A DNA stretch of 64,000 nucleotides from Watersipora subatra. Lineage: Eukaryota; Bryozoa; Gymnolaemata; Cheilostomatida; Watersiporidae. A program made the translations under genes and the position numbers. A model generated the notes under the pieces. It searched no databases and had not been told where the DNA came from. It saw only the letters and a list, made by a program, of their open reading frames with translations. The stretch spans positions 19,863,452 through 19,927,451 of the forward strand of contig NC_088712.1 in the NCBI RefSeq assembly GCF_963576615.1, read 5' to 3'. Below are positions 27,301-64,000 of the stretch, one piece after another; within the stretch, counting starts at the first letter, position 1; every line of letters begins with the position of its first letter.

Positions 27301-30300
27301 TTATATGTCAAAATATTGAAATACAAGTTTTACCATGGATATAATTAAAAATACATATTTAATAAACCTAAATGATAAAAGCAAATGTTGATAAACTCAA
27401 ACCTTTTATATGTGGATATCTATTATTAATAATATGAGGTTTTCTTTAATATCATGACAACAATATCAGAAAGAATTTTTTTATCAAAAGTAAAACACTC
27501 CTTTCCATGAATCAGCAATTATGAATAACATTGAAAAAATAAAAACAAAAATACGTGTATGCATTCAGCAGCATTTTAGTAATCTACCACTCAAAGCCCA
27601 TGGCAACAGCAGAACACCAAAGAATAATTATAACAAGTCAAATTATTCAATAGTTTTTCAGGTAATAAGTTTTTTTGTGTAACAAGCCAGAAATAATAAA
27701 AAAACTAAACAATGTGTACTAGAGAGATGGTGAGAGCACCAAAAGATTAAGAGATAAAATGAAATTAAGTTCAGAATAAATTTTTGTGTTTGTACTGAAG
27801 TTGTCACACAGATTTCTGTTCGAAGGTCAATGTTCACGATTAGGCAATGTAAATTTTTCTGCTTGGCTTATGAACCAACAAAATGAGCAAAAAATGTCAA
27901 TATAGTCTTAGTTTCAACCCGTAGTTATTAAACAATCGCCAGCTGTTTTAAAGTGCTGAACTGTAAACAAAGAAAGCAAAAGGGTTAATAAAATGTCTAT
28001 TGAAAAGTTTAGGCCAAAAATTCAAATTCTCTAACTGTTCACTAATGGAAAAACACTAAATTTAGAAACAACCTAAAACTATTAAGAGTTCATGAATGCT
28101 CCTTTATGACCTTGGCCTGTTCCCAATAGCTATTGCTGCCATTAGTATTCCGCTTCCATACTACTATACTGTTGATAATAACAAGACAATAACAACAGCA
28201 ACGATATCACAGCAAAACTATTACTGCTACTACCACTACTAATACTACTATAATTACCACTACTACTGCTACTATTACTTCTACTACGTAGCCTACTGTT
28301 ACTACTACTACTATTACTACTATTACTACTACTACTTTTACTACTATTATTACTACTACTATTATTACTACTACTATTACTGCTACTATTACTACTACTA
28401 TTGTTATATCTCGTTTTGTCAGTTTCTGCTTACCGAAAAAGAGTTGTCTCCTCATTGCTGGGAAATTCGACCTTTGCATTATCTAAGTCGGAACTGCGTA
28501 GGAAATTGCATTATGGTTTGGATCCGCCATCTTGTAATCCACGTTGGCATTCGCTATAGTGTATTTGGCACGATTAGTACGACCAATAATATTGCGTAGC
28601 TGGCCTACGTCACATTGGTATAGCGTGAGTTATTTCTCTTAATAGGGGCAGTGCTGATAAACTCCCCCTGTCACAGTTCTTGCACTCGTTGGTCTTCAGA
28701 TACAACATCTAACCGGGAGATTCAAACTATCCTTCTTTCCTTTTTGGGATGGACTCTCGACCGGTGAAGGCCTCTTCCACGAGACGGTGATCGTCCTACA
28801 CCTTTACTATCAAAATCCGTGCCTGGTCACGGCAGGCTGTGTACATCCAAGAAGGAGTGACCAGTCTGCAGTGGGCGATCACTGATAAAACGGTAAATTA
28901 CTGTTATAACATATTTTCATAATTAATTAGTCGTATTTCTATTAATTCACGCGTCCATAATGTAATAACTATAAGGTTCACACCGTAATATTATTAAGCT
29001 CTGCTTAATAATATTATGTGATAATAATAACAGCCCACGGCTTTCTTTCTCTCGCATGCTCAGCGAGCTGTTAAATATTGTGGTATGAAAAGAATTTAAA
29101 CAACCTACAATTTCAGTTATGAGTAACTGATTTATCCCGATTTCTTTCATATCATTTTGGTGGAGATGCCTGTTCCTTCAACGCGGTACAGGTTATAATA
29201 TATATAAAAGGCTGTTAGAAAAATAAGTTTCATAATGAGTATAAATAAAGAAATAATTTACTAATAGGAATAATTCACTAATTTTCTTTCTGTGCCATTC
29301 CTGGTCTACTACACGAAGGCTTTCGTATCTTCGCTGACCTTACTGGCTTTAGTCTTCATTGTCTCAAACTTGTCGTGAAGTTCTTTTACAGCTAACCGCT
29401 GTTTGGTTTGTTTTACGAAGTATGTGTTTTCGAATCAGATATTAAACATAATTTTGCCCCGTTCTTTAGTGGGTTTATTGGAATTTTTTTTCTTTTCACT
29501 TATTATAATATTGTTCCTTGTTCTTTCACTTTCTTACACGCGGTGTTTCCTCCCTGTAATCAGTGCCGGTTCACTGATTGTTTGCTCGCTTGTCAGCTTG
29601 CATGTTCTCGAACTGATTGTTATCGGTCTCGTTAGTGGCAGTCTTGCCGTAAACCCTACTTTCTTACCCACACCTGCAATCGCGTGGCTGATCACCTCGC
29701 GTTGGTGTTGTGCGTATCGGAGCTCCCCCTTTGCTGGCGTCGTCCCAGCTGTGTTTGTAGTGCCGCTTATTGCGTTGCGCTGTTTTCATTAGGGTTTGTT
29801 AGTGTTGCCTGGTGTTCGTGGGCTCACTGTTTAAAAATTTTGGGAGAAGTATTATAGTGAAATAAAAACTATTACACCGTATTAAAAGCATTATATTGTT
29901 AGAACTATTATAGTGAAGTAATCACTATTACACAGTATTAAAAGCATTATATTGTTATAGTAATACATTAATACGTTCTTTTCATTGAGATAATAATTTT
30001 AATTCTTGCATTATGGCAGAAAGGTTTGATGATGACTTTGACCCCATGGCAGATACAAATCAACTAAACTCACGAAGTAGATTAAATGTTCAAGATAAAT
30101 CAAGTACACATAAGCAGGATACAAGAGCTGATATGAAAAAGGAGATGCTCGAGTTCTGGAAAACTCTTCCCGAGGATTTAAAATTAGAGGTGATGAACCA
30201 TGAACTAGGGTCGGATGCACCAAATCTAAGCGCAGCATCTGCATTTAGAACACCCAGAATGCCAACCCTTTCGCCAACATCGAGCAATCCGTTTATAACC

Positions 30301-33300
30301 CGCAGTAGAGCAAGTATTTCTTCTGCTCCTCCTACGGCCAGTACACGGTTGCCAACCAGGGCACTTCCTACACAACCACCTTCAGTACTCGCTACACAAC
30401 CGCCTTCAGTACTCGCTACACAACCACCTTCAGTATTCGCTACACAACCGCCTTCAGTACTCACTACACAACCACCTCCAGTATTCGCTACACAGCCACC
30501 CTCAGTATTCTCTACACATCCATCTTCAGTAGTCCCTGTACAGCCACCTTTGGCACCAATAGTACTCCCTAACTTCCATGATATGGACAATTTTTCCAAT
30601 GGTCCAGGAGAAAGTTGGGATAGTTTTATTGAAAGGTGGGAGATTAAGATTAGACCATATCGCTTCTCGAGCGAGCAACTGGCACTTACTCTGCCAGATA
30701 GATTTACTGGTGCGGCTTATGCTAAATATAAACGGGTCGTTAGGGCCAACCCTTCACTAATGATTGACTACGTACAGCTTAGAGCTGAATTAAACAAACT
30801 TTTCACTGTCCATACTAATCTTCAGGGGCGTGGTTTATACTCTATCCAACAAGGTCGCCGAACTGTCGGTGAATATTATGCCGAACTCTCCTCGCTTGCC
30901 GACACAGCGTATGGCAACGTACCAGAGGCATATCGTGACACTTTCGTTGTAGACATTTTTATTCAAGGACTTAGAGAATCTATTAAGAAAGGACTTATGT
31001 TTAAAGGTAAAATGACCCTTTCTCAAGCGCTGCATGAAGCTGAAGTTGTCGAGCTTGCAGAATTACAAAATAAAACCCCAGCTAAAATAATGTCTGTAAA
31101 CGAAGTTAACTCAGTCGAACCTCTTCTCGCTCCCTTATGTAATCAAATCAAGGATTTGAAGCTCTTGGTGGAAAAACAGGCAGGTAACCCAGTAGCTCAA
31201 CGTAATCACCAGCCTCAACCACCATATCGGTCTAGTTATGGTAGTAATCACCGTAGACCACAGGATAATAATAAACCTCGACAGTTCTCAAACAACTTTC
31301 AACCACGACCACGTACCCAAAGTTACAACTCGCAGAGTCAATCGCAATCTTTCAGAAATATATCTAATCGTGGTCGCTCGCAAAGACCTTCTTATGGTCG
31401 TCCACAACAACCGCAATCGGCGGAAAGACTTAGATCTAAAAACAATCAATCTAACAATGGCTGCTGGACATGTGGTTCACGGAATCATTGGTCGAGAGAG
31501 TGTCCTAAGAAACATGTAAACGCTGTCACTGCTACTGCTGATGGACTCGAACCACAACAGTATGCGGAGTTTCTTCTTACTCAACCTCAAGAAATGGATG
31601 ATTTGAAAGTCAACGCTGTTGAGGTCGTTTCAAATCCACCTTTGAGGAAACCATCTTCACGTGGTACTGGTTCGAAACTATCACCTAAGAATAGTTTCAT
31701 GCTCACCCTTCTTACAGTCTGTGCTCTGTTTTCTGGTACTGAATCCGCACGGATCATCCTTCCTGATAACCCGATGATTTGCGGTTCTACTCCAAAAGCT
31801 GCTCACATTTACAACATAACTCATGAATACCCTTGCACATCCAATGCAACGAGCAATAATCATACAGTCCCTCAAAACATGAACATACAAGTATATCAAA
31901 AGAACATAGTAGAGTGGCAATCAGAAGCCTATCAGTGTGCAAAGTTTAAGGACAAAATAGCTACCCAAATTTCTTTCTTTACAGATATAAAATCCCGTAC
32001 TGCTACAACTGAACGCATACCTGTAAGCAGAGAGGAATGTGAAAGGATGATAACACACAAAACTTGTTCTGCTGGTTCTTTAATTGGTTCTAATGGTGTA
32101 TATGTTACTCAAAATTCTGCCAATGCATCCTACCAATACTGTTGTAAAGAACATACTTTTGAAGCTGATCAATGTAGTGTCATTGTAACTTCTGTCTTTA
32201 AGAAACACAATGTAGAAGTCTTTGAGTCACCCGCAGGTGATGTTTCGCATTGTCGTTATGAACATGGTAGCTGTTTACTTTCAGATCAATCGATACTTGT
32301 ATGGGAAACTAATAAGGAAAGTTATTGTGAATACGAAAAATGGTACACGATAAAAGGGAAATTGTATGAAGACCATTTTGTCAGTAATGATCGCAACTTG
32401 GCTCTAACTTTCCACACATACGGGTTTCTGTCATTCATTAACTGTAAAGGAAACAAAACTAGTCTCTCTGATCAAGGGGTCATGATATCTTTTCTTGATA
32501 CTGTCAATTTTACTACGATAGCTCAGAAAATTAAGGCTGATTACACTGCTTGGGGTGATGATGTAGTACTTTTGAATGCCATGTTGCAAGGATTAGCAGG
32601 AGAAATGCATAATAACCTGATAGAGCAGTTCTGGAACAGTTACTATTATACATGCCACCTTCTTTCACAAACTTTAAAAATAATCACTTTGCTTATGGAG
32701 AAACATCCTACAGTCAGTGCTAGGTACATGCTACAAAACCCATACATAATAGCTTCAAGTGGGCCTGGTATTCTAGAAATTTATCCTTGTACCGAATTAC
32801 CTCCTGATCTTTACCGCATTCTTCCAATGTCGGAAAACAATTGTACGCAATTTATTCCCATCGAAGTAAGCATGGGCGGTTCAAAGAGAATTGGATATCT
32901 AGATCCTATAGAAAACGTTGTCCACAAAGATACCCACACTGTTGACTGTTCCTACATAGACAGAGTGATCCTTAGACTAAATGGTAGTACGTTACGTTAT
33001 TCACGAACTGGTGACTTTTCTGCTTTGACTAATGTTTCTAGACTTCGTCTCCCTGACATTCAATTAGGCATACAGCCTATTAAAATCCATGAAACTGTTT
33101 ATAGCACTGCTCATCGTTTAAACTGGCATGAATTAAGTAACCACCAAAGTCTAAATACCTTGTTAGCAACTTTAGACCGCCAAAGACAAGTTCTGGAAGC
33201 TATGGGCGTACAAAGTTCACCACATCATACTTTAGAACATAATGTTATAGAGTCAAAGGAATCGCTGCTTGGTAATTCCTTATTTGCCTTCCTGTTTGGT

Positions 33301-36300
33301 GGACACGTTGCTTCCGGTTATGAATTATGGTCTTTCTTCTGTAATATCATTGTTTCGATAGTGGCCATAGGTTTTATACTGTACACATTGAGAAAACATT
33401 GTTGTCCGAACTTTCGAGTCACTATACCTCGTCTTGGTAATGGACAGCTTGTAGCTAATGTAGACGTTGAGCGTAATGATGCAGATTGTTCCACTGATTC
33501 TGAGGATGAAGTCGCAGAGACGACTGTCTCTCCTTTAACCCCTCAACAAATAGTGCCAATGGAACCCAATTGTCCAGCCCCTACTGGTCAATCTTACCTT
33601 CCCCCTTTAACATCAACATCTGAGACATGTCATCTCAGGACTCTTCCAACTACTTCAACGGCTACGTACATCCGTCCTCCTGCGTACCAACCTATCTACC
33701 CCAACCTTGCCGAAGCTGAATTGGAACGATGTGATGAGCCGACCAATGATGCTCCTTGGCGCCCATTCAATTGGCCTTCTTTCTACAGGAAGAGTACCAA
33801 ATGACAATTCGGTCAGTCACCTAATCCCTTATCAAAGATCAATATGATTGGCAATCATCAGAAATCTACCCAATGTCAAGCCCTCATATCAGTTATCATC
33901 AATGGTCGAGAATGCATCTCCCTTGCTGATGCTGGTGCTTCTGTGTCTTTACTTCACAGTGATATCGCTAAAGCGCTTCGTTTGAAACTTACTGCTTCTA
34001 AATTGAATGCCACTAGCGTCACCAGTGAATCCTTAAAAATTCTCGGTGAAACCACTGTGAAGGTCTCTGTTGGTTCACAATCTTACAATCAAAGATTGTT
34101 CGTGACTTCTAATATCACCCAAGAAGTGATATTGGGTACTGATTTCTTAAAAAGATTAGGTGATGTGACCTATAACTTCAACAATTGCACTTTCAAATTC
34201 AATAGTACCGTCCTGCCTATGGGCACTCGCAATCAATCTGATTCTGTTTCAGTTCTTAACGCGCTTCAGATCCCTCCTTTATCTGAAGTCGCAGTTGTGG
34301 CTAACGTTTCAACCCCATTTCTTGACGGTCATCAATGCCTTTTTGAAGGTGACAATCGTCATGTTTCTAAGCATTTGTTGGTTGGAAAATGTGTAGATCG
34401 TGTTTCTGGTACTAAAGTTCGTATACCCATTATAAATGTAAGTAAAGAAATACAAGAAATTAGTGTGAATTCGATTGTTGGCACTATCGAACCTCTAGAT
34501 GAGGATGACAATCTTATGACCACTAAGATCAAGATTCATACAAAGGGGAATACAGTAAATGTGAAGAGTATTAAACCTAGTGAGCGTGTGGATCTACGTA
34601 ATACGATGCTGACTGACAACCAAAAAGCTAAACTTTCTGATCTGCTTGATGAATTCAAAGATATTGTCGGTGAAAATATATCTGAATTGGGCAGAACAAA
34701 AATAGTACAGCATGTCATTGAGACCGTACCTGGAACTGTCCCAGTAAGGAGTAGACCTTACAACATCCCTGTTGGTCTCCGTGCTGAGGTCAAAGCCCAG
34801 CTTGATGAAATGCAAAGGCAAGGGTTAATCACTGTCGGTACTGGGGAATGGTCTTCTCCCATTGTTCTGGTGAAAAAGAAAGATAACACCTGGCGTTTCT
34901 GCGTCGATTATCGCAAACTGAACGCTGTAACTGTAAAACACTCTATGGCCCTTTCTTCTATCGATAATGCTGCTGAAATCATGCATGGTAAAAAATATTT
35001 CAGTACTATCGATCTTTGCTCCGGTTTCTTTCAGGTAGCTCTACATGAGTCTTCCCAGGAGAAATCTGGTTTTATAACCCCTTGGGGTCCTTACAAATGG
35101 AAAGTCATGCCGCAAGGTGCTTCGGGTTCTCCTTCCACATTTGCCCGCCTGTCTCTTGCAATTATGGCCGACCTCATCAGTAATGGTAGTAGCTGTGTAT
35201 ATCTTGACGACTGGTTGATGACGTCAAAGGACTTTCCGTCACACCTTCAATTATTGAGAACTGTTTTTACTCGTTTGAGGTTTGCAGGATTGAAATATCG
35301 TCTTTCCAAGAGCTTCTTCTGTCAGAAAGAGGTTTTGTATCTTGGACATGTAATCTCCCAAGACGGTATGGCCGTAGCTCCACATAATGTCAAAAAAATT
35401 GTGGACTTCCCTGCTCCTAAGGACAAGACTGGTGTTCGCAGACTCTTGGGTCTGTTCGGATTTTATAGGAGTTTCATCAAAGGATTTAGCAAAATTGCTG
35501 CCCCTTTGATCAAACTTACTAATAAAGACATTGTTTTCCATTGGGACGAAGAGTGCCAACGCGCCACTGCTGAATTGAAGTCCCACATAACCTCTGCTCC
35601 TGTCCTAGTCTTTCCTGATTTCTCTCGTCAGTTCATCCTTACTACTGATGCGTCAGCTATTGCCGTCGGTGGTGTTCTATCTCAAATAAGAGAAGATGGC
35701 AAAGACCATCCAATCGCCTTCTTTTCAAAAGCTTTAAACAAAGCCGAAAGGAAATGGGACTCTTGTGAACAAGAATTATTCGCTATCCTTTCTGGTGTAA
35801 GGCATTTCAGACATTATTTGCTAAACACAATGTTCCTAATTAGAACTGACAACAAAGCGTGTACGTATGTTCTAAGAAAATCAGAGCTGTCTCCACGGCT
35901 AGCTCGTTGGGCCGTACAACTTGCAGACTATGACTACGAGATTATACACACCCCTGGAAGACATAACCATGTTGCTGACGCTCTTTCCAGAGCTGAAATG
36001 GTTGCTACTATTCACTCTGATTCTCCAGACCCTGTTGAGAGCGAGATGAGTGTAGCTCAAAGTCGAGATTACTACCTAGGTCCGATAAAGTTATTCCTAG
36101 AGAAAGGAAAGTTTCCAGCAGATATGTCTAAACGCAACCAAAGTCAAGTGCGAAAAGACAGCGAAAACTTTCGAATTGTTAACGGTGTTCTGTATAGAGA
36201 TCAAAACTCAAAGTTACTTCTTGCCATCCCAAGTAGCCAGAGAAAAGCTCTGCTATATTCTGCTCATGAATCTCTCATGTCATTACACCCTGGTGTTACG

Positions 36301-39300
36301 AAAACCTTGTTGAAACTAAAAGATCAATACTGGTTTCCTCATATGACTAAAGAAGTCACCGAACATATTGCACAATGTGGGTCTTGTCAACGTCGTAAGA
36401 ACCCTAAAACTCCAATGAGAGTTCCCTTGAAAAATCAAATGGCTACCTATCCTTTCCAAGTTCTCTCTTTGGATTTTCAAGGCCCATATGTCGAGTCTGA
36501 ATCGGGTATGAAACATATCCTGATGTTCACGGATCATTTCACAAAGTGGTGCGAGATGATCCCCACTAAAGATCAAACGGCTGCTACGGTTGCACAATGT
36601 TATATAGACAAAATCTTTTGTCGTTACGGGTGTAGTGAAACCCTCATCAGTGATCGTGCTAAGAACTTTCTTAGTGATGTAGTTAAACAAATCAACGATT
36701 TGTTGAACGTTGATCACCGATTTACGTCACCTTATCACCCTCAAACTAATGGGCAAGTCGAGGTTTACAACCGTAGTATAGCCAATATGTTATCCCATGT
36801 TGTAGCCGATAACCATCGTGATTGGGATAAGTTTGTTCCTTTTTGTCAGCTAGCTCACAATAGCTCCCGACACACTGTTATCAACGCATCTCCAAGCCTT
36901 CTCCTGATGTGCAGAGAACTGCGTTTACCTTTCGACCTCACTAAACCTCGCATACAAAAGGAACAAACTGAAGGTTCATATGCTGAAGAGCTACACAATC
37001 GAATGAACCAAGTATGGGATCTGGCTAGAGAACACATCAGCCAGGGAAAACATAAACAGAAAAAGTACTATGACCGAAATACCCACCCATCTAACCTGAA
37101 AGTAGGCGATGCCGTCCTATACTACAATAGACGCGGATACAAAAACCGAACGTCTAAGCTAATCCAGAGATGGACTGGCGTCTATATCATCAAATGGGTT
37201 TCAGATACAAATGCAGACATCCAACTATTCGACGATCCAGATCACTCTCCCATGCGGGTACACATAAATAATCTCAAACTTTATCGTGGACCTCTTGTGC
37301 GTGGTGATAGCAGTGATATAAACGTTGAATTTGATGTACAAGATACTTCTGAAGATGAGAGTGAGGTTTCTTTTCATAAATCCCCATCTGTAAGTGGTCG
37401 TTATGACACAAATCACTCCAATCTCGATGATAGCTCATCGGACGACCAACCTTCATATCACAGTACTTTACAGGCACAATCAAGTGACCATACAAAACGG
37501 AGTGACCACAATGCTTCGGATCACTTTGCTACTGTCGCAAAATCAAATAAAGCGAACAGTCCACATAGTTCCTCTTCTACAGCGTCGAGAGACGATAATA
37601 GGTATACCCTACGTCGCCGCCCTAACAAGAAGAGGGACCCAAACTTTGTATATACTTCTTAGTCTTGTTATATATTCTTCCTGTCGACTGCGGACAGTCG
37701 ATTATATTGTCCGGTCGATGTCAGTAGTTTACTCATACATATATGTATATCATAGAGATGCTTACATTCGTTCAGTTATAACCAAAAATACCAAAAATCC
37801 AAAAAAATCTTATTTAGCGTTATAAACTTTTATTAACGTTGAACTATTACGTTCAAATATTCTCTTTATGGCTTACGTGCTTACGTTGTAAACTTTTTAT
37901 TAACATTGAACTATTACGTTCAAATATTCTCTTTATGGCTTACGTGCTGATCTGCATGTTCCTATTATCTAATCCATGGGTATTAACTGTATACCTACAA
38001 ACTGAATGAGACACTGCTATAATCTCCTTGTTATGCTGCGAGTGTACTCGCATTGTGATGTCTCCTATACGTAACATTTGCGGTGTTCACAATTATTTAC
38101 ATGTATACTACTGTATGTCATAATAATCAGTGTATGTGTCACGTATATCACATACGAACCTAAGAGCACACTTAATCATCTGCTACTTTCTATCAGCAGG
38201 TATAGTTAGGCCAAAGAGAGAAGTCGAAGATAGAGAACTCTAGTCATTGGTGTATATACTTCTATCTCACGACTGGAGTTGCCCCTTTTAAACCTAAAGA
38301 CAATAGGTGGTATAATTTTTCTTTAACCACCCATTGGTAAGTTTTCATTTTTCATCTATAGACATTATCCATCGTGTCTTAGAATAACTTGTGTGGTCTA
38401 TTAACATCTAACCATATTTCCATCATGGGTCACCACTTGAATAAAGGGAGATGCTATTTTTCCTCCCACTGTTCTGTGAATCTTCACAGAGGACTGTGAA
38501 TTCTTAATATCAGGGAGAATGTTATATCTCGTTTTGTCAGTTTCTGCTTACCGAAAAAGAGTTGTCTCCTCATTGCTGGGAAATTCGACCTTTGCATTAT
38601 CTAAGTCGGAACTGCGTAGGAAATTGCATTATGGTTTGGATCCGCCATCTTGTAATCCACGTTGGCATTCGCTATAGTGTATTTGGCACGATTAGTACGA
38701 CCAATAATATTGCGTAGCTGGCCTACGTCACATTGGTATAGCGTGAGTTATTTCTCTTAATAGGGGCAGTGCTGATAAACTCCCCCTGTCACAGTTCTTG
38801 CACTCGTTGGTCTTCAGATACAACATCTAACCGGGAGATTCAAACTATCCTTCTTTCCTTTTTGGGATGGACTCTCGACCGGTGAAGGCCTCTTCCACGA
38901 GACGGTGATCGTCCTACACCTTTACTATCAAAATCCGTGCCTGGTCACGGCAGGCTGTGTACATCCAAGAAGGAGTGACCAGTCTGCAGTGGGCGATCAC
39001 TGATAAAACGGTAAATTACTGTTATAACATATTTTCATAATTAATTAGTCGTATTTCTATTAATTCACGCGTCCATAATGTAATAACTATAAGGTTCACA
39101 CCGTAATATTATTAAGCTCTGCTTAATAATATTATGTGATAATAATAACAGCCCACGGCTTTCTTTCTCTCGCATGCTCAGCGAGCTGTTAAATATTGTG
39201 GTATGAAAAGAATTTAAACAACCTACAATTTCAGTTATGAGTAACTGATTTATCCCGATTTCTTTCATATCACTATTACTACCACTACTATTACTACTGC

Positions 39301-39720
39301 TACTATTACTTCTGCTACGTAACCTACTATTACTACTACTACTTTTACTACTACTATTATTACTACTACTATAATTATTATTACTACTATTACTAAACGA
39401 ACAATAACTACGTAAGTTGTGCCTAATGTAATGCATAGCTTTCAGTCTGATCGTGTATTATGAAAACGCAAGAAACAACAAGTGTCCCATATACAATTGT
39501 GAAAAGGCCTTCATTTGTGCAATAGAAAATATTCCAAAGAAGTAAAATTGAAAGGCAGACAAGAATACTTACAATTGACCTTTTCCATAATATCAGGTAC
39601 ATATTTTATAGTAGGCCTAATCATTGTTGTGTTTTGGTAGATGATCAGAGTAGAAGCCTCAGCATTTTGATATACACAAAGAAGCAGAAAATTGAAGATC
39701 AGCTCATTGAAGAGAAACAT
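18375..39720 (-). CDS. Gene A: single-pass membrane protein, array member 1 (7 exons, 256 aa)
   Basis: Exons in transcript order: 39720-39573, 26947-26813, 22930-22745, 22541-22506, 21512-21477, 19042-18946, 18507-18375. All borders are AG/GT, and the total is 771 nt, an unbroken 256-codon frame plus TAA. Exons 1-5 all end in phase 1; the transmembrane exon ends in phase 2. Residues 1 to about 22 form a signal peptide. The ectodomain (to about residue 180) has sites such as Asn-Thr-Thr, Asn-Ser-Ser and Asn-Cys-Thr and a WWMVYNMYVNDG stretch, with two cysteines in exon 3 that could pair. Exons 4-5 are a short Pro/Thr stalk. Exon 6 is the helix ALIVGVVVGVLFLGVIAVV. The tail carries PPPDY, a WW-domain-binding PPxY motif. 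No family was recognised; a cell-surface receptor or adhesion role is inference. Intron 1 holds the LTR retrotransposon (antisense), intron 5 a Helitron. Confidence 0.8.
18508..18562 (-). other. Conserved alternative 5' extension of the last exon (gene A)
   Basis: A second acceptor TTTTGACAG lies 55 nt upstream of the acceptor that fits the transmembrane exon. The extension starts AT-AAT-CAA and is open in the tail frame (17 codons, NQLEMLLQCYGNFFNIF). Its entry phase matches exons 1-5, so skipping exon 6 would give a product without a membrane helix but with the tail. If exon 6 is joined here instead, the frame hits TAA at once, giving a tail-less membrane form. The extension is almost unchanged in genes B and C (41042-41096, 53530-53584), while nearby intron sequence has diverged. 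Confidence 0.55.
20309..21435 (+). mobile_element. Helitron-like element, copy 3, in intron 5 of gene A
   Basis: It starts TCTATATATATA, as at 4954. It ends CTAA|T (21432-21435) after a hairpin ACCCGG-GCAACG-CCAGGT with one mismatch. The terminal 250 bases match copies 1 and 2. The inside is longer and includes a tRNA-like segment in reverse orientation (20408-20475) and a stretch with no coding content. It stops 41 bases from the splice donor of exon 5 (21477). It is absent at the matching place of genes B and C, so it inserted after they split from A. Confidence 0.6.
25135..26505. repeat. Large imperfect inverted repeat in intron 2 of gene A
   Basis: A block starting TTTGGCCAAACATCG (about 25138) and running about 95 bases (to about 25230) returns inverted at about 26405-26505, with about 80 percent match. 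The middle is about 1.2 kb. Gene B has the same structure (about 48450-49835). Gene C has the same two arms (about 61880-61970 and 62040-62135) but only a short middle, so A and B carry extra sequence between the arms. The arms could be termini of an old foldback or MITE element, with the extra 1.1 kb a later insertion. Confidence 0.5.
26263..26309. repeat. Perfect hairpin in intron 2 of gene A
   Basis: GATCTACCAGACCTAC (26263-26278) pairs exactly with 26294-26309, loop 15. It lies in a cluster of further GATCTGGTAG half-repeats (26249-26330). The gene B copy is at about 49596-49642. No function is assigned. Confidence 0.6.
28201..28401. repeat. CTA/TTA trinucleotide microsatellite, left part, interrupted by the retrotransposon
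   Basis: A run of (CTA)n and (TTA)n units with ACT and TAC variants. It continues at 39273-39400 after the inserted element. The unbroken homologue in gene B is 51540-51890. On the minus strand it reads as poly-Val or Ser/Asn peptide, which is a repeat artefact. Confidence 0.9.
28402..29154 (+). repeat. 5' LTR
   Basis: 753 bp, beginning TGTTATATCTCG and ending CTTTCATATCA. The right border is where it stops matching the 3' LTR (TTTTGGTGG here, CTATTACTACC there). Near 28985-29017 it has an inverted repeat around AATATTATTAAGC/GCTTAATAATATT, which could form a strong hairpin in the RNA. Confidence 0.95.
29158..29175 (+). other. Primer-binding-site candidate
   Basis: TGGTGGAGATGCC starts four bases after the LTR. 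TGG is the complement of the CCA end of a tRNA, and the place is right for a minus-strand primer site. I could not match it to a particular tRNA. Confidence 0.55.
29176..30012 (+). other. 5' leader of the retrotransposon with hydrophobic uORF and 56-bp tandem repeat
   Basis: An untranslated leader of about 0.85 kb. It contains an open frame of 129 codons (29403-29792) rich in Phe, Leu, Val and Ile; it is T-rich, so its hydrophobic character may only mirror base composition. Before the start codon a 56-bp block is repeated in tandem (29851-29906 and 29907-29962, starting ATTATAGTGA). The packaging signal would be expected in this leader, but nothing proves where. Confidence 0.5.
30013..33804 (+). 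CDS. gag-env: Gag-Env fusion ORF of the LTR retrotransposon (1263 codons)
   Basis: The start has A at -3 and G at +4. Residues about 117-178 are an eight-residue tandem repeat (ATQPPSVL). Residues about 195-350 are a retrotransposon Gag capsid-like region (ESWDSFIERW onward). A Gln/Arg/Ser-rich nucleocapsid follows, with one CCHC knuckle, C-x2-C-x4-H-x4-C, from Cys484. At Met563 the character changes: a hydrophobic signal-like segment (MLTLLTVCALFSGTESA), then a Cys-rich ectodomain of about 530 residues with about nine N-glycosylation sequons, a hydrophobic anchor at about 1105-1127 and a tail of about 135 residues with PPAY and YPNL. This is the layout of a type I viral envelope glycoprotein. 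I see no furin-type site; the Cys/Trp spacing recalls chuvirus/mononegavirus-like glycoproteins, but that is tentative. How Env is separated from Gag (signal peptidase cleavage, splicing, internal start) is not shown. Confidence 0.85.
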   Translation: MAERFDDDFDPMADTNQLNSRSRLNVQDKSSTHKQDTRADMKKEMLEFWKTLPEDLKLEVMNHELGSDAPNLSAASAFRTPRMPTLSPTSSNPFITRSRASISSAPPTASTRLPTRALPTQPPSVLATQPPSVLATQPPSVFATQPPSVLTTQPPPVFATQPPSVFSTHPSSVVPVQPPLAPIVLPNFHDMDNFSNGPGESWDSFIERWEIKIRPYRFSSEQLALTLPDRFTGAAYAKYKRVVRANPSLMIDYVQLRAELNKLFTVHTNLQGRGLYSIQQGRRTVGEYYAELSSLADTAYGNVPEAYRDTFVVDIFIQGLRESIKKGLMFKGKMTLSQALHEAEVVELAELQNKTPAKIMSVNEVNSVEPLLAPLCNQIKDLKLLVEKQAGNPVAQRNHQPQPPYRSSYGSNHRRPQDNNKPRQFSNNFQPRPRTQSYNSQSQSQSFRNISNRGRSQRPSYGRPQQPQSAERLRSKNNQSNNGCWTCGSRNHWSRECPKKHVNAVTATADGLEPQQYAEFLLTQPQEMDDLKVNAVEVVSNPPLRKPSSRGTGSKLSPKNSFMLTLLTVCALFSGTESARIILPDNPMICGSTPKAAHIYNITHEYPCTSNATSNNHTVPQNMNIQVYQKNIVEWQSEAYQCAKFKDKIATQISFFTDIKSRTATTERIPVSREECERMITHKTCSAGSLIGSNGVYVTQNSANASYQYCCKEHTFEADQCSVIVTSVFKKHNVEVFESPAGDVSHCRYEHGSCLLSDQSILVWETNKESYCEYEKWYTIKGKLYEDHFVSNDRNLALTFHTYGFLSFINCKGNKTSLSDQGVMISFLDTVNFTTIAQKIKADYTAWGDDVVLLNAMLQGLAGEMHNNLIEQFWNSYYYTCHLLSQTLKIITLLMEKHPTVSARYMLQNPYIIASSGPGILEIYPCTELPPDLYRILPMSENNCTQFIPIEVSMGGSKRIGYLDPIENVVHKDTHTVDCSYIDRVILRLNGSTLRYSRTGDFSALTNVSRLRLPDIQLGIQPIKIHETVYSTAHRLNWHELSNHQSLNTLLATLDRQRQVLEAMGVQSSPHHTLEHNVIESKESLLGNSLFAFLFGGHVASGYELWSFFCNIIVSIVAIGFILYTLRKHCCPNFRVTIPRLGNGQLVANVDVERNDADCSTDSEDEVAETTVSPLTPQQIVPMEPNCPAPTGQSYLPPLTSTSETCHLRTLPTTSTATYIRPPAYQPIYPNLAEAELERCDEPTNDAPWRPFNWPSFYRKSTK
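30370..30555 (+). repeat. 24-bp in-frame tandem repeat inside gag
   Basis: About seven to eight units of GCTACACAACCACCTTCAGT plus a four-base variable end, coding Ala-Thr-Gln-Pro-Pro-Ser-Val-(Leu/Phe). It forms a proline-rich linker before the capsid-like region and is likely variable in copy number between insertions. Confidence 0.85.
33802..33843 (+). promoter_or_regulatory. In-frame UGA junction between Gag-Env and Pol
   Basis: Both ORFs are in the same frame. Only the TGA at 33802-33804 separates them; the next 13 codons to ATG 33844 contain no stop. The context AAA-TGA-CAA-TTC resembles the CARYYA-type readthrough context in five of six positions. Pol could come from UGA readthrough, re-initiation at 33844, or splicing. 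A good acceptor TTCTTTCTACAG ends at 33788, but every frame from it meets a stop before pol. A weaker AG at 33816 (CGGTCAG) is in the Pol frame and lies after the UGA. Confidence 0.5.
33844..37662 (+). CDS. pol: Pol polyprotein, Ty3/gypsy type (1272 codons)
   Basis: Domain order is protease, reverse transcriptase, RNase H, integrase. The protease has its active-site loop at residues 29-31 as Asp-Ala-Gly, where Asp-Thr/Ser-Gly is usual, and the later ILGTDFL flap-end motif near residue 97. RT runs from about 300 to 500, with CVDYRKLN, MPQGASGSPSTFAR and YLDD at 453-456. RNase H has TTDAS, a Glu in the CEQELFAI helix, RTDNKA and HVADALSR. Integrase has a His-His-Cys-Cys finger (ending CGSC), then D877, D937 and E973, giving D,D(35)E, and the GPY-like RWTGVYIIKW. 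A Ser/Asp-rich tail of about 140 residues ends in an Arg-rich RYTLRRRPNKKRDP. No chromodomain was seen. All catalytic residues of RT, RNase H and IN are present. Confidence 0.95.
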   Translation: MIGNHQKSTQCQALISVIINGRECISLADAGASVSLLHSDIAKALRLKLTASKLNATSVTSESLKILGETTVKVSVGSQSYNQRLFVTSNITQEVILGTDFLKRLGDVTYNFNNCTFKFNSTVLPMGTRNQSDSVSVLNALQIPPLSEVAVVANVSTPFLDGHQCLFEGDNRHVSKHLLVGKCVDRVSGTKVRIPIINVSKEIQEISVNSIVGTIEPLDEDDNLMTTKIKIHTKGNTVNVKSIKPSERVDLRNTMLTDNQKAKLSDLLDEFKDIVGENISELGRTKIVQHVIETVPGTVPVRSRPYNIPVGLRAEVKAQLDEMQRQGLITVGTGEWSSPIVLVKKKDNTWRFCVDYRKLNAVTVKHSMALSSIDNAAEIMHGKKYFSTIDLCSGFFQVALHESSQEKSGFITPWGPYKWKVMPQGASGSPSTFARLSLAIMADLISNGSSCVYLDDWLMTSKDFPSHLQLLRTVFTRLRFAGLKYRLSKSFFCQKEVLYLGHVISQDGMAVAPHNVKKIVDFPAPKDKTGVRRLLGLFGFYRSFIKGFSKIAAPLIKLTNKDIVFHWDEECQRATAELKSHITSAPVLVFPDFSRQFILTTDASAIAVGGVLSQIREDGKDHPIAFFSKALNKAERKWDSCEQELFAILSGVRHFRHYLLNTMFLIRTDNKACTYVLRKSELSPRLARWAVQLADYDYEIIHTPGRHNHVADALSRAEMVATIHSDSPDPVESEMSVAQSRDYYLGPIKLFLEKGKFPADMSKRNQSQVRKDSENFRIVNGVLYRDQNSKLLLAIPSSQRKALLYSAHESLMSLHPGVTKTLLKLKDQYWFPHMTKEVTEHIAQCGSCQRRKNPKTPMRVPLKNQMATYPFQVLSLDFQGPYVESESGMKHILMFTDHFTKWCEMIPTKDQTAATVAQCYIDKIFCRYGCSETLISDRAKNFLSDVVKQINDLLNVDHRFTSPYHPQTNGQVEVYNRSIANMLSHVVADNHRDWDKFVPFCQLAHNSSRHTVINASPSLLLMCRELRLPFDLTKPRIQKEQTEGSYAEELHNRMNQVWDLAREHISQGKHKQKKYYDRNTHPSNLKVGDAVLYYNRRGYKNRTSKLIQRWTGVYIIKWVSDTNADIQLFDDPDHSPMRVHINNLKLYRGPLVRGDSSDINVEFDVQDTSEDESEVSFHKSPSVSGRYDTNHSNLDDSSSDDQPSYHSTLQAQSSDHTKRSDHNASDHFATVAKSNKANSPHSSSSTASRDDNRYTLRRRPNKKRDPNFVYTS
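37663..38511 (+). other. Retrotransposon 3' non-coding region with 66-bp tandem duplication
   Basis: No env is found after pol, unlike the usual retroviral order. The region holds a direct repeat of 66 bp (37823-37888, 37889-37953; TAAACTTTTATTAACGTTGA and a close variant) and otherwise no open frame of note. Confidence 0.75.
38512..38519 (+). other. Polypurine tract
   Basis: AGGGAGAA directly before the TG of the 3' LTR, the expected plus-strand primer position. Confidence 0.85.
38520..39272 (+). repeat. 3' LTR
   Basis: 753 bp, the same length as the 5' LTR, with no mismatch seen by eye. Confidence 0.95.
39273..39400. repeat. CTA/TTA trinucleotide microsatellite, right part
   Basis: The continuation of 28201-28401 beyond the inserted element. 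Its sequence matches 51758-51885 in gene B closely. Confidence 0.85.
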
Positions 39721-49900: not shown

Positions 49901-52199
49901 AAACTCATTAGTGGAACATGGCATGGAACAGTTTTTCGAGACAGGGAACTATCTGTACCTACAGAATTGTGAGCCAGACTATCTCTGTGAGCTTCAGATA
50001 ATATACAAAGCAAATAATTTCAATCTAACTAGATGGTTGTTTTGTGGAGTTACTGAATTCTCTTAGGTTAAACACTTTCCAAACAACAAAGATTCTAATC
50101 AATTTTACTTTGGTGACAGTAATGTAGAGCATTGCTTTTACTTACGATTTCCTTCTTTACCATTCCAGTTCATAGTAATATCTCTGTAAGGATAATCTAC
50201 ATTCCGTCCAAGTAAGCGATATGCCTCAGATTCAGTAGGGGTTTCATAAAAGAGCATTACTGCTTCCATTTCTTCATCAACTAAAAGCAATTAGCATCAA
50301 AACTTGAATAATTAAAGTTGCCTATTGTTAAACAATAATAGTATAAACCAAAAAATAATAAAATACAACTTATTAGAACTTCTTGACAAACTATATAATA
50401 TATATATATCAGTTTGCGCAACTCCATTGACAGAGTAAAATTTACATGTTAAATAAGAACATTGGATTTATGTTTACTCATAGCATACTTTAAAAGGATT
50501 ATTTTTTATTATCATCGATGTGTAGTACAAACAGTAGTGCATGCAATGAAAGACATGACTGTGTAATAAAATGGAAAATTGATGCAATTGATCAACATCC
50601 TTTTCTATATCTGAGCCATTGCAGACTGTTGTTTTATATGTCAAAATATTGAAATACAAGTTTTACCATGGATATAATTAAAAATACATATTTAATAAAC
50701 CTAAATGATAAAAGCAAATGTTGATAAACTCAAACCTTTTATATGTGGATATCTATTATTAATAATATGAGGTTTTCTTTAATATCATGACAACAATATC
50801 AGAAAGAATTTTTTTATCAAAAGTAAAACACTCCTTTCCATGAATCAGCAATTATGAATAACATTGAAAAAATAAAAACAAAAATACGTGTATGCATTCA
50901 GCAGCATTTTAGTAATCTACCACTCAAAGCCCATGGCAACAGCAGAACACCAAAGAATAATTATAACAAGTCAAATTATTCAATAGTTTTTCAGGTAATA
51001 AGTTTTTTTGTGTAACAAGCCAGAAATAATAAAAAAACTAAACAATGTGTACTAGAGAAATGGTGAGAGCACCAAAAGATTAAGAGATAGAATGAAATTA
51101 AGTTCAGAATAAATTTTTGTGTTTGTACTGAAGTTGTCACACAGATTTCTGTTCGAAGGTCAATGTTCACGATTAGGCAATGTAAATTTTTCTGCTTGGC
51201 TTATGAACCAACAAAATGAGCAAAAAATGTCAATATAGTCTTAGTTTCAACCCGTAGTTATTAAACAATCGCCAGCTGTTTTAAAGTGCTGAACTGTAAG
51301 CAAAGAAAGCAAAAGGGTTAATAAAATGTCTATTGAAAAGTTTAGGCCAAAAATTCAAATTCTCTAACTGTTCACTAATGGAAAAACACTAAATTTAGAA
51401 ACAACCTAAAACTATTAAGAGTTCATGAATGCTCCTTTATGACCTTGGCCTGTTCCCAATAGCTATTGCTGCCATTAGTATTCCGCTTCCATACTACTAT
51501 ACTGTTGATAATAACAAGACAATAACAACAGCAACGATATCACAGCAAAACTATTACTGCTACTACCACTACTAATACTACTATAATTACCACTACTACT
51601 GCTACTATTACTTCTACTACGTAGCCTACTATTACTACTACTACTTTTACTACTATTATTACTACTACTATTATTACTACTATTATTACTACTACTATTA
51701 CTACTATTATTACTACTACTATTATTACTACTATTATTACTACTACTATTACTACTACTATTACTACCACTACTATTACTACTGCTACTATTACTTCTGC
51801 TACGTAACCTACTATTACTACTACTACTTTTACTACTACTATTATTACTACTACTATAATTATTATTACTACTATTACTAAACGAACAATAACTACGTAA
51901 GTTGTGCCTAATGTAATGCATAGCTTTCAGTCTGATCGTGTATTATGAAAACGCAAGAAACAACAAGTGTCCCATATACAATTGTGAAAAGGCCTTCATT
52001 TGTGCAATAGAAAATATTCCAAAGAAGTAAAATTGAAAGGCAGACAAGAATACTTACAATTGACCTTTTCCATAATATCAGGTACATATTTTATAGTAGG
52101 CCTAATCATTGTTGTGTTTTGGTAGATGATCAGAGTAGAAGCCTCAGCATTTTGATATACACAAAGAAGCAGAAAAAACAGCTCATTGAAGAGAAACAT
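40915..52199 (-). CDS. Gene B: single-pass membrane protein, array member 2 (7 exons, 254 aa)
   Basis: Exons in transcript order: 52199-52058, 50280-50146, 46255-46070, 45851-45813, 43440-43405, 41611-41512, 41041-40915; 765 nt, 254 codons plus stop. Splice borders and phases match gene A. Against A, exon 1 lacks two signal-peptide codons, exon 4 has one more codon, and the transmembrane exon has one more codon (helix IIVGVLVGVLFLGVLIAII). The tail stops two codons earlier, with PPPDY kept. The extra acceptor upstream of the last exon is at 41096. The 5' half (exons 1-2 and introns) is nearly identical to A and the 3' half to C, so the gene is a recent chimera; exon 3 itself changes from C-like to A-like in its middle. 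All length changes are multiples of three, which argues that the copy is functional. Confidence 0.8.
44296..45110. mobile_element. 815-bp TIR element in intron 4 of gene B
   Basis: The ends are inverted repeats of about 70 bp beginning CAATGATATACAGCCCCCAA, flanked by the 7-bp direct repeat CTTAGAC (44289-44295 and 45111-45117). No transposase is encoded; the open frame inside (44369-44554) has no features. The element is present at the same place in gene C and absent from gene A. Confidence 0.75.
46566..50145. other. Intron 2 of gene B, near-identical to gene A intron 2
   Basis: From about 46566 on, the sequence matches 23233 onward with only scattered differences. It contains the long inverted repeat (about 48450-49835) and the hairpin at about 49596-49642 but no recognised exon. 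Confidence 0.6.
51540..51890. repeat. CTA/TTA microsatellite in intron 1 of gene B (empty site of the retrotransposon)
   Basis: Continuous trinucleotide tract. The stretch CTAT at 51758-51761 corresponds to the duplicated target of the element in gene A. The minus-strand reading frames over it (Val-rich or Ser/Asn-rich) are repeat artefacts. Confidence 0.9.
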
Positions 52200-53402
52200 T
52201 TTACTAGTTACGGCTTGCCTCTTTTGCTTTGTGAGCAGTTATGATCGTTTATTCCCCTTCCAATGTTGCTCGATCAATCATGCCGTCTGTATGAATCATC
52301 GGAAAACCGTCGCACGTAGTTCCCTTTCAATAACTAGCGCAACAACTACTCGCTTGATCGGGTTGTGAATTCAGCGACGTCTCGGCTACCTTATCATAGG
52401 ATGCTTACTCAAGCGGAAATACATGACTCTTCGCAAATGATAAACATGCCATTGTTATGCAAATAAAGAGAAACTAAATCGCGTACTCCCGTGCGACAAC
52501 ATACGCGCCACACGCGCCACACGCGCCACACGAGTTTAAGTACATGTACCCGTTAGCAAAATAATCAGCGTATTAGTTAACTGTGATGTAATCGTGTAGC
52601 GAACGGTTAAGCAATATCGCCAGCTTCCTCGTAAAATTTTGGACCCAGCTGTAACGTGTTTGCTCACGGCCAGTTTGTAACAGGTTTGTAACGGCAATGA
52701 TATACAGACCCCATAAATAAATGCTATCAAAAGTTTAAAAGTTGCCTTGTTCCTTCTCATTTTGGGAAGGCAACTTTTATTGCTTCATTGGTCGTTTTAC
52801 TGAGAATACTAAAGTGCAAAATGAATGCAATTATTTGATGATGTTAACAAGCTAAAGTAATTGCATACAGTTGTTAGACAGATCATCTTTGTTGAATTTA
52901 GATTTAAAGATTTATATTTGCTTTAAAAATTCTGCACTATGCCCTTTTGTGAAAGAGAAAGCAATATAGTTTGAAACACTGCAAGTAACCACAATAATTA
53001 TGTGCAGTTTTAATATTACCATATACAAACCTTTTTTATACAATGAAGAATACATGAATATGTACAAAATGCAGCATTGAGCAAAAAAAATCAGTAAAAA
53101 AACTTGCAAAATTTTATGTAGGTATTGAACAAAGGAAAGCATTAAAAATTGTTTGGAACCCAAAAGGGAAGTCACAGATTCAAAAGCACTATTAGTTAGT
53201 ATAAATTTTGATGCCAATGTCGGTGTGTTGTCATTGAGTTTGAGGGTAAAGCATGATTAATGTCAACAAATATATCAGAGCTAAACTGACTTACATCCCA
53301 ATAAAAAATTGCAGACTAACTGCTACTATATTTCTCTATGTAAAGTTTCAAACTGTAGTGGGTGATTATCACAAGATTCTCGCAAAACGTTAGTTTTTAC
53401 TT
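52200..53402. other. Intergenic region between gene B start and gene C stop
   Basis: Homologous to 39721-40914. It contains three copies of GCGCCACAC (52503-52531). The perfect hairpin at 52739-52748/52767-52776 overlaps a minus-strand AATAAA (52781-52776), the poly(A)-signal candidate of gene C. Confidence 0.5.
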
Positions 53403-63759: not shown

Positions 63760-64000
63760 CTAGCAGAAAGCAACAACAACAATGGGATTATAGCAAAACT
63801 ACTACTGCAGCTGTCACTACTACTACTACCTTTCCTTCCGTACTACTACTGTTACTTTTGCTACCACTACTTCTACCACCACTACTACTAAAACAAAAGT
63901 TACTACTTGTGTTACCGCTATTACGGCTACAACTATGGTCATTATTGTTACTTTTGGTACTATCATTACTACTACTGCTACTACTACTAGCACTACTACT
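63760..64000. repeat. CTA-type microsatellite in intron 1 of gene C, cut by the window edge
   Basis: The homologue of 28201-28401 and 51540-51890, more degenerate (ACTACTACT with CTTCC and TTTTGCTACC interruptions). It shows that the third unit continues past the right border. Confidence 0.8.

What the first reader, a model, noticed from the sequence alone, without database searches (positions are those of the whole stretch)
28402..39272. Intact LTR retroelement with gag-env-pol order and Env fused in frame to Gag
The envelope-like glycoprotein region (signal-like segment at Met563, glycosylated ectodomain, anchor at about 1105-1127) continues the Gag frame after the CCHC knuckle, and Pol follows as a second ORF. 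Known retroviruses and env-bearing Ty3/gypsy or BEL elements place env after pol. Both frames are intact, so this is not a decayed rearrangement; about 0.85 kb after pol is non-coding. It could be a distinct endogenous-retrovirus-like lineage with its own expression strategy.
Basis: partly seen in the sequence, partly recalled or inferred. Interest (0 to 1): 0.88.

Follow-up and report, generated by a model that had tools for sequence, protein, structure and literature searches.

The report
Retroelement with envelope inside Gag-Pol
A family of retrovirus-like mobile elements carries its predicted envelope (membrane-fusion) gene between its capsid and enzyme genes in one reading frame, so capsid, envelope and enzymes are likely made as one chain that threads the membrane; the papers our searches listed did not show this order.

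Summary
Confirmed, and not private to this copy. Window 28402-39272 is a young Ty3/gypsy-type LTR element (LTRs 753/753 identical, TSD CTAT, empty-site paralog next to it). Gag and a predicted class III (gB/rhabdo/chuvirus-like) envelope share one 1263-aa ORF; Pol follows. In the host genome 60 of 74 related RT places have this envelope upstream on the same strand, 0 downstream, 14 none; 0 of 34 places at 43-45% RT identity have it.

Pol is in frame with Gag-Env behind one stop: UGA-C in 20 of 21 copies whose frame reaches it, in five families. In another branch 6 of 20 junctions read have no stop, and one element lists an open frame of 2498 aa.

Best reading: Gag-Env is made and, by UGA readthrough or directly, Gag-Env-Pol; an internal signal peptide would put the envelope outside and leave Gag and Pol in the cytosol; the envelope tail carries late-domain-like motifs. 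Topology, readthrough and infectivity are untested. Envelope-bearing gypsy elements are known; env inside Gag-Pol was not seen in the papers listed. The closest paper (Chary & Hayashi 2025) was not held.

The parts
28398..28401 (+). Target-site duplication CTAT, 5' copy, in an ACT/CTA microsatellite
28402..29154 (+). 5' LTR, 753 bp, TG...CA
   Evidence: 753/753 identical to the 3' LTR
29158..29170 (+). Likely primer binding site TGGTGGAGATGCC (first 8 bases shared with two other families; tRNA-Ala type is recalled, not tested)
30013..33804 (+). Gag-Env ORF, 1263 aa plus UGA stop
30703..30978 (+). Gag capsid domain (Retrotrans_gag PF03732)
   Evidence: 27.7 bits against cut-off 24.1
31462..31503 (+). 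CCHC zinc knuckle (CWTCGSRNHWSREC)
31696..31749 (+). Predicted internal signal peptide of Env (residues 562-579)
   Evidence: basic run, hydrophobic core and A-x-A-like sites, judged by simple rules
31750..33324 (+). Env ectodomain, predicted class III fusion glycoprotein
33325..33393 (+). Env transmembrane anchor (about residues 1105-1127)
33394..33801 (+). Env cytoplasmic tail with PPAY (33676-33687) and YPNL (33697-33708) late-domain-like motifs
33802..33810 (+). UGA CAA UUC: in-frame stop and predicted readthrough context between Gag-Env and Pol
33844..37662 (+). Pol ORF from its first ATG, 1272 aa (open frame starts at 33805): PR, RT, RNase H, integrase
38512..38519 (+). Short polypurine tract AGGGAGAA next to the 3' LTR
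38520..39272 (+). 3' LTR, 753 bp
39273..39276 (+). Target-site duplication CTAT, 3' copy
50535..52964 (+). Empty-site paralog in the neighbouring tandem-duplicated unit

Best explanation
This is a young, intact Ty3/gypsy-type LTR element whose predicted class III envelope gene sits inside the Gag-Pol reading frame, between the zinc knuckle and the protease, so that Env is likely made as the middle of a Gag-Env-Pol polyprotein. Shown by sequence: gag-env-pol order in many copies, one shared frame, a single UGA-C before Pol in one branch and no stop there in another. Inferred: most ribosomes stop at UGA-C and make Gag-Env; a minority would read through and make Gag-Env-Pol; one-ORF families would make only the long chain. 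An internal signal peptide after the zinc knuckle would thread the chain into the ER, leaving Gag in the cytosol, the Env ectodomain in the lumen, and the Env tail and Pol in the cytosol. Signal peptidase would likely cut Gag from Env, as capsid is cut from the next protein in flaviviruses (recalled). The PPxY, PS/TAP and YPxL motifs in the Env tail would call the host budding machinery, a job usually given to Gag in retroviruses (recalled). The element protease would then free Pol.
For: Order: 60 of 74 env-clade RT places have env upstream on the same strand (1467-5287 nt from the end of the env match to the RT start), 0 downstream; 0 of 34 RT places at 43-45% identity have this env (from; places, not elements, as some are pieces of one element). 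RT-RNaseH was read at env+2.9 kb in 6 of 6 elements, in env phase and stop-free in 5; the sixth carries a frameshift. Fusion of Gag to Env: 31 of 142 env places list an open frame of 1000 aa or more, four of these with a stop counted inside; 10 of 11 public relatives of the first search have Gag upstream in the same protein. Stop: UGA-C in 20 of 21 copies that reach it, across five families with different flanking codons (L038, L044, L045 and L046 agree). One family has UGA CUA G and another UGA CAA UCA, which fit the published high-readthrough contexts UGA CUA G and CAR-YYA (passages of PMC4359377, and PMC2194720). No Met lies between the stop and the catalytic DAGA in L023 and L026; in L027 the only one is 4 residues before it, so an own AUG for Pol is unlikely there. 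One-ORF branch: 6 of 20 further junctions read have no stop from Env tail into PR (L032-L036, L043); C6:58.6M has gag, env, PR and RT pieces all open and a listed open frame of 2498 aa, found by both the env and the RT query. Env start: no Met in the 25 residues before the signal core or its first four in 7 of the 18 rows scored (P0005, P0007, P0009, P0010, P0012, P0015, P0017). Selection: Env dN/dS 0.08-0.17 in 8 of 8 pairs. Late domains: PPxY in 15, PS/TAP in 16 and YPxL in 17 of 28 tails, shuffled means 1.24, 0.42 and 1.82.
Against: No RNA, ribosome or protein data. RNA folding after the stop was not better than shuffled in the 5 families tested (z from -0.23 to +1.48). The window's own context UGA CAA UUC is one base off CAR-YYA; L018 has UGA-U and L031 UGA-G. 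In Tca2 a gag-UGA-pol junction did not direct readthrough in yeast (passages of PMC2194720). The window family has an acceptor-like sequence just before the stop and its own Pol ATG, so spliced Pol mRNA stays open for this family. Of the six stop-free junctions only C6:58.6M lists a whole open frame; others have lesions elsewhere. The structure models are middling (pLDDT 55.2 and 66.5; global TM 0.37 or less), the window Env itself hits no Pfam family, and the last part of the ectodomain was poorly modelled. Signal peptide cleavage was judged by simple rules. 14 of 74 RT places have no env place; 13 of these were not read.
Confidence: 0.72

Rival explanations
1. Env and Pol are each expressed from spliced subgenomic RNAs, as env is in Drosophila errantiviruses and Pol in foamy viruses (the latter recalled); the shared frame is a relic.
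For: Errantivirus env comes from spliced mRNA, in one subclade spliced from within gag (passages of PMC12992720). The window family has CCTTCTTTCTACAG|G 15 nt before the stop and an ATG for Pol, which L019 also has.
Against: No acceptor-like sequence by the rule used in L019, L023 and L027; L026 has a weaker one elsewhere. Pol's ATG and Env's Met are not conserved. UGA-C and the open linker are kept, and stop-free junctions exist. Deletion copies L010, L011 and L070 have 5-10 shared bases at the joints and do not look like GT-AG introns (bases read by eye).
Confidence: 0.2
2. A private rearrangement of an ordinary gag-pol-env element.
For: Only the general rule that env lies after pol.
Against: Same order in 60 of 60 paired places, with Env places at 38-100% identity; two other families with complete LTRs and no Gag-Env or Pol match in the 3' piece; related Gag-Env proteins in public data.
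Confidence: 0.01
3. The envelope region is a captured host glycoprotein that no longer works as a fusogen.
For: The window copy alone hits no Pfam family; three of 11 aligned relatives match a coilin Tudor model weakly (best E 0.005), taken as chance.
Against: The 50 BFVD rows shown are viral glycoproteins or unnamed or uncharacterised viral proteins, and the 50 PDB rows shown by Foldseek are herpesvirus gB; PF24664 passes its cut-off in P0009 and P0013; purifying selection. No library of cellular structure models was on hand.
Confidence: 0.05

Closest known systems
Errantiviruses / envelope-carrying Ty3/gypsy elements (Metaviridae)
   Same: LTRs, Ty3-type PR-RT-RH-IN Pol, an envelope gene; type III fusion glycoproteins are reported in mosquito gypsy elements (passage of PMC13172572)
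   Different: In Drosophila env is a third ORF downstream of gag and pol, made from spliced RNA, and F-type (passages of PMC12992720); here env lies between gag and pol in one frame
Anakin (BEL/Pao with a chuvirus glycoprotein, Dezordi et al. 2020)
   Same: LTR element with a chuvirus-type fusogen
   Different: Anakin is BEL/Pao (passages of PMC7642597); this Pol looks Ty3-type. The place of the glycoprotein in Anakin was not stated in the passages I saw. A later survey found no clear capture of such glycoproteins by Gypsy or Copia elements (passage of PMC10084718)
Gammaretrovirus MLV (recalled) and Candida Tca2
   Same: gag stop in frame with pol; for Tca2 a UGA
   Different: No env between gag and pol (recalled); Tca2 readthrough was not found in yeast (passages of PMC2194720)
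Flavivirus capsid-prM junction (recalled)
   Same: Cytosolic capsid followed in one chain by an internal signal peptide and a membrane glycoprotein
   Different: Positive-strand RNA virus; no shared ancestry claimed
Class III fusion glycoproteins (herpesvirus gB, rhabdo-, nyami- and chuvirus G)
   Same: Predicted fold over model residues about 20-450
   Different: 10-18% identity in the rows; here embedded in a retroelement polyprotein

Membership tests
Ty3/gypsy LTR retroelement (Metaviridae) | Two LTRs with TG...CA and a short TSD | tested here: met
   753/753, TSD CTAT; two further families with TSD ATTT and GCTC, read by eye
Ty3/gypsy LTR retroelement (Metaviridae) | Pol order PR-RT-RH-IN | tested here: met
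Ty3/gypsy LTR retroelement (Metaviridae) | Pol groups with known Ty3/gypsy reference clades | tested here: inconclusive
   Own clade of 23 of 51 sequences, support 1.0; mostly unnamed proteins, no named reference set
Errantivirus | env as third ORF downstream of pol | tested here: not met
Errantivirus | env from spliced subgenomic RNA | not testable with these tools
   no RNA data
Errantivirus | F-type (class I) envelope | tested here: inconclusive
   Matches are class III-like, but models are middling and an unlisted fold is not excluded; no RX[KR]R in the window Env
BEL/Pao Anakin | BEL/Pao Pol | tested here: inconclusive
   Pfam hits are RVT_1, RT_RNaseH, RT_RNaseH_2, gag-asp_proteas, H2C2 and rve, with no BEL-specific model at E up to 1; which models are BEL-specific is recalled, and no BEL reference was put in the tree
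Retroviridae | gag-pro-pol-env order | tested here: not met
Class III fusion glycoprotein | gB/G-like fold | tested here: met
Class III fusion glycoprotein | Pfam Monjiviricetes_fusion PF24664 | tested here: inconclusive
   Of 6 relatives scanned, P0009 (27.5) and P0013 (33.1) pass cut-off 27, P0011 (20.4) does not, three have no match; 2 of 11 members of A2 match, the window copy does not
Stop-codon readthrough gag-pol | pol in frame behind a stop in a known leaky context | tested here: met
   contexts from PMC4359377 and PMC2194720; exact published contexts in two of five families, UGA CUA U in a third; activity itself not tested

The most novel reading that the evidence does not exclude
A deep, separate lineage of retrovirus-like agents that makes capsid, class III fusogen and polymerase as one membrane-threading polyprotein, with late domains in the Env tail, so that Env and Pol are built into the budding particle by covalent linkage; it spread both as a UGA-readthrough branch and as a one-ORF branch and is still active in its host.
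Probability: 0.5. Interest if true: 0.92.

Novelty: new variant of a known kind. Interest (0 to 1): 0.8.

Why it matters
Retroviruses and env-bearing retrotransposons are usually described with env after pol and made apart from Gag-Pol. A conserved lineage with Env inside the Gag-Pol frame would show that an envelope can be gained as an internal domain, offer a second solution to packaging Env and Pol with Gag, and give a simple reporter test of how it is decoded. Screens that look for env only after pol would miss such elements.

Tried and rejected
Private rearrangement: rejected. Captured host protein: disfavoured. Independent AUG for Pol or Env: disfavoured. Deletion copies as reverse-transcribed spliced RNA: the joints of L010, L011, L016 and L070 lie at 5-10 shared bases; for L010/L011 and L070 I looked for GT-AG by eye and saw none, for L016 I did not look. 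RNA structure after the stop: none found. Rfam in the window: no match. Viral contigs (IMG/VR): 0 relatives in two scans. Troyka elements (PMC12440569, abstract and first of five parts read) were set aside: they have CG...CG ends and 3-bp TSDs. Whether the 34 RT places at 43-45% identity carry some other envelope was not tested. Host identity was not established: the assembly is unnamed (784 Mb, 239 contigs), and a family search meant for it did not complete; 'animal' is an assumption. The primer tRNA search did not complete, nor was the Gag query of the own genome. A weak shortage of synonymous changes in the Env tail (8 of 136 against 77 of 565 codons, p 0.012) may hint at an RNA element and was not followed. 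In one search the gag rows of L002, L008, L009, L012 and L013 look shifted by indels and are not used; the tail rows have very few changes. A furin-like RX[KR]R was found in 2 of 19 rows (L019, L053) and not followed. Literature: 10 paper searches (one search was rejected for its wording); in the capped listings shown I saw no gag-env-pol element, and the phrase 'gag-env-pol' with 'LTR' gave 0 papers. Chary & Hayashi (eLife 2025, RP108449) is known to me only from how others cite it; it is not held, so it may describe this order.
Full report
What is there. The window lies in an unnamed 784-Mb assembly (G000:C5:19863452-19927451). Between identical 753-bp LTRs are two long ORFs. ORF1 is Gag with one CCHC knuckle followed in frame by a signal-like core, a cysteine-rich ectodomain with 9 sequons, a membrane anchor and a tail of about 136 residues. 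ORF2 is a Ty3-type Pol. The insertion is young: LTRs 753/753, a clean 4-bp TSD, and a paralog of the site without the element in the next unit of a tandem duplication (50535-52964, 97.7%).

The order is a lineage trait. An Env query found 142 scored places (of 404 candidates) at 38-100% identity. An RT-RNaseH query found 108 places (106 of 8389 candidates scored, so counts are lower bounds). Pairing by coordinates: of 74 RT places at 54% identity or more, 60 have an Env place upstream on the same strand within 5.5 kb, 0 have one downstream within 9 kb and 14 have none; of 34 RT places at 43-45% identity, 0 have one. Places are not elements: two pairs among the 74 are pieces of one locus each. 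One of the 14, with a 99% identical RT, was read: it is a deletion from the primer site into mid-env, and env remains upstream of pol; the other 13 were not read. In six elements RT-RNaseH was read directly at env+2.9 kb. Two of these, C6:58.6M and C5:2.3M, have LTRs at 99.9% and 99.4% identity, TSDs ATTT and GCTC (read by eye), a primer site starting TGGTGGAG, and no Gag-Env or Pol match in the 3' piece from env+5.9 kb on.

Relatives elsewhere. Two protein searches gave 17 distinct relatives of Env. In the first, 10 of 11 carry Gag in the same protein; the eleventh (P0013) starts in the linker after the knuckle. Of the six new ones in the second, P0017 is Gag-Env; P0015 begins in the linker and P0014, P0016, P0018 and P0019 begin inside the signal peptide or Env, which reads as truncated records, though their DNA was not seen. 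A Pol search listed 120 of 1562 matches: 21 proteins at 51-100% identity and 99 at 46% or less. In an RT-RNaseH tree of 51 chosen sequences the window Pol sits in a clade of 23 with support 1.0; it includes P0042 and P0043 (52% in that region), whose env is unknown. P0017 (Gag-Env) and P0040 (Pol) list the same longest-contig length, 11752, and P0015 (Env) and P0031 (Pol) both list 7353, which suggests shared contigs (inference).

Expression. Gag-Env and Pol are in one frame. Of 30 loci re-oriented and read, 21 reach the Gag-Env stop in frame; 20 have TGA followed by C and one (L018) TGA-T; the other nine are frameshifted, deleted or stopped earlier. The flanking codons differ between the five families, while UGA-C stays. 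Two families have UGA CUA G and UGA CAA UCA, which fit published high-readthrough contexts (UGA CUA G, and CAR-YYA; passages of PMC4359377 and PMC2194720); a third has UGA CUA U, the window has UGA CAA UUC and L023 UGA CAU GAG. In L023 and L026 there is no Met between the stop and the protease active site. In a second branch there is no stop: 6 of 20 further junctions read are open from Env tail into protease; L031 has TGA-G where its relatives have TGG, which looks like decay; L038, L044, L045 and L046 have the UGA-C stop (L038 also a premature TAG); L039, L041 and L042 carry several stops; six show no protease motif by the pattern used. C6:58.6M is open in its gag, env, tail-PR and RT pieces with a listed open frame of 2498 aa; other members of that branch carry lesions elsewhere. 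Together these make Pol as a continuation of Gag-Env the simplest reading. No RNA fold after the stop stands out.

Topology and budding (inferred). Before the core there is a basic, G/K-rich run and after it small residues fitting signal peptidase. A Met near the core is not conserved. So Env likely enters the ER as part of the Gag-Env chain. Gag and Pol would then both be cytosolic, which is topologically consistent. Of 28 tails examined (one truncated to 5 residues; three sequences dropped for lack of the anchor motif), PPxY is in 15, PS/TAP in 16 and YPxL in 17, against shuffled means of 1.24, 0.42 and 1.82 (several tails are near-identical, so not independent). These are late-domain-type motifs (recalled) at a place where a budding signal would be useful.

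Known context. [quoted passage not shown] Gypsy elements with type III fusogens are reported in mosquitoes, and envelope-carrying gypsy elements are said to be widespread in metazoans. The gene content is therefore known in kind; the order and the polyprotein logic are what seem new, subject to the unread eLife paper.

Limits. No expression, topology or infectivity data; host unnamed; counts are lower bounds.

Noticed in passing
39273-64000 and 50535-52964: Tandem segmental duplication with a unit of about 12.4 kb (39273-42535 matches 51758-55025 at 99.0%, 42533-47100 matches 54977-59506 at 94.0%); the second unit holds the empty site of the element.
   Followed up: partly
10304 to about 12470: Satellite array with a 49-bp period: 39 overlapping 300-nt register copies, 61-97% to the reference in the 30 shown.
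   Followed up: no
28195-28440, 39250-39431, 51528-51913, 63844-63998: ACT/CTA-rich microsatellite at the insertion site, recurring about once per duplicated unit.
   Followed up: partly
L010, L011 (C3:46.06M, C5:24.16M): Two copies share an in-frame deletion of nearly all of pol, leaving an open Gag-Env frame that ends in the last residues of Pol: a Gag-Env-only derivative that may have multiplied using another copy's Pol.
   Followed up: partly
33394-33801: Among 11 close copies the Env tail has few synonymous-variable codons (8 of 136 against 77 of 565 in the rest of Env, Fisher p 0.012) and more amino-acid variation (26 of 136 against 61 of 565, p 0.013).
   Followed up: no
G000 C6:31.6-33.5M, C4:30.8-31.1M and many small contigs: A large decayed family at 38-41% Env identity, often listed as 448 aa with 3-4 TAA, clustered in a few chromosome regions, perhaps satellite-like or centromeric.
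   Followed up: no
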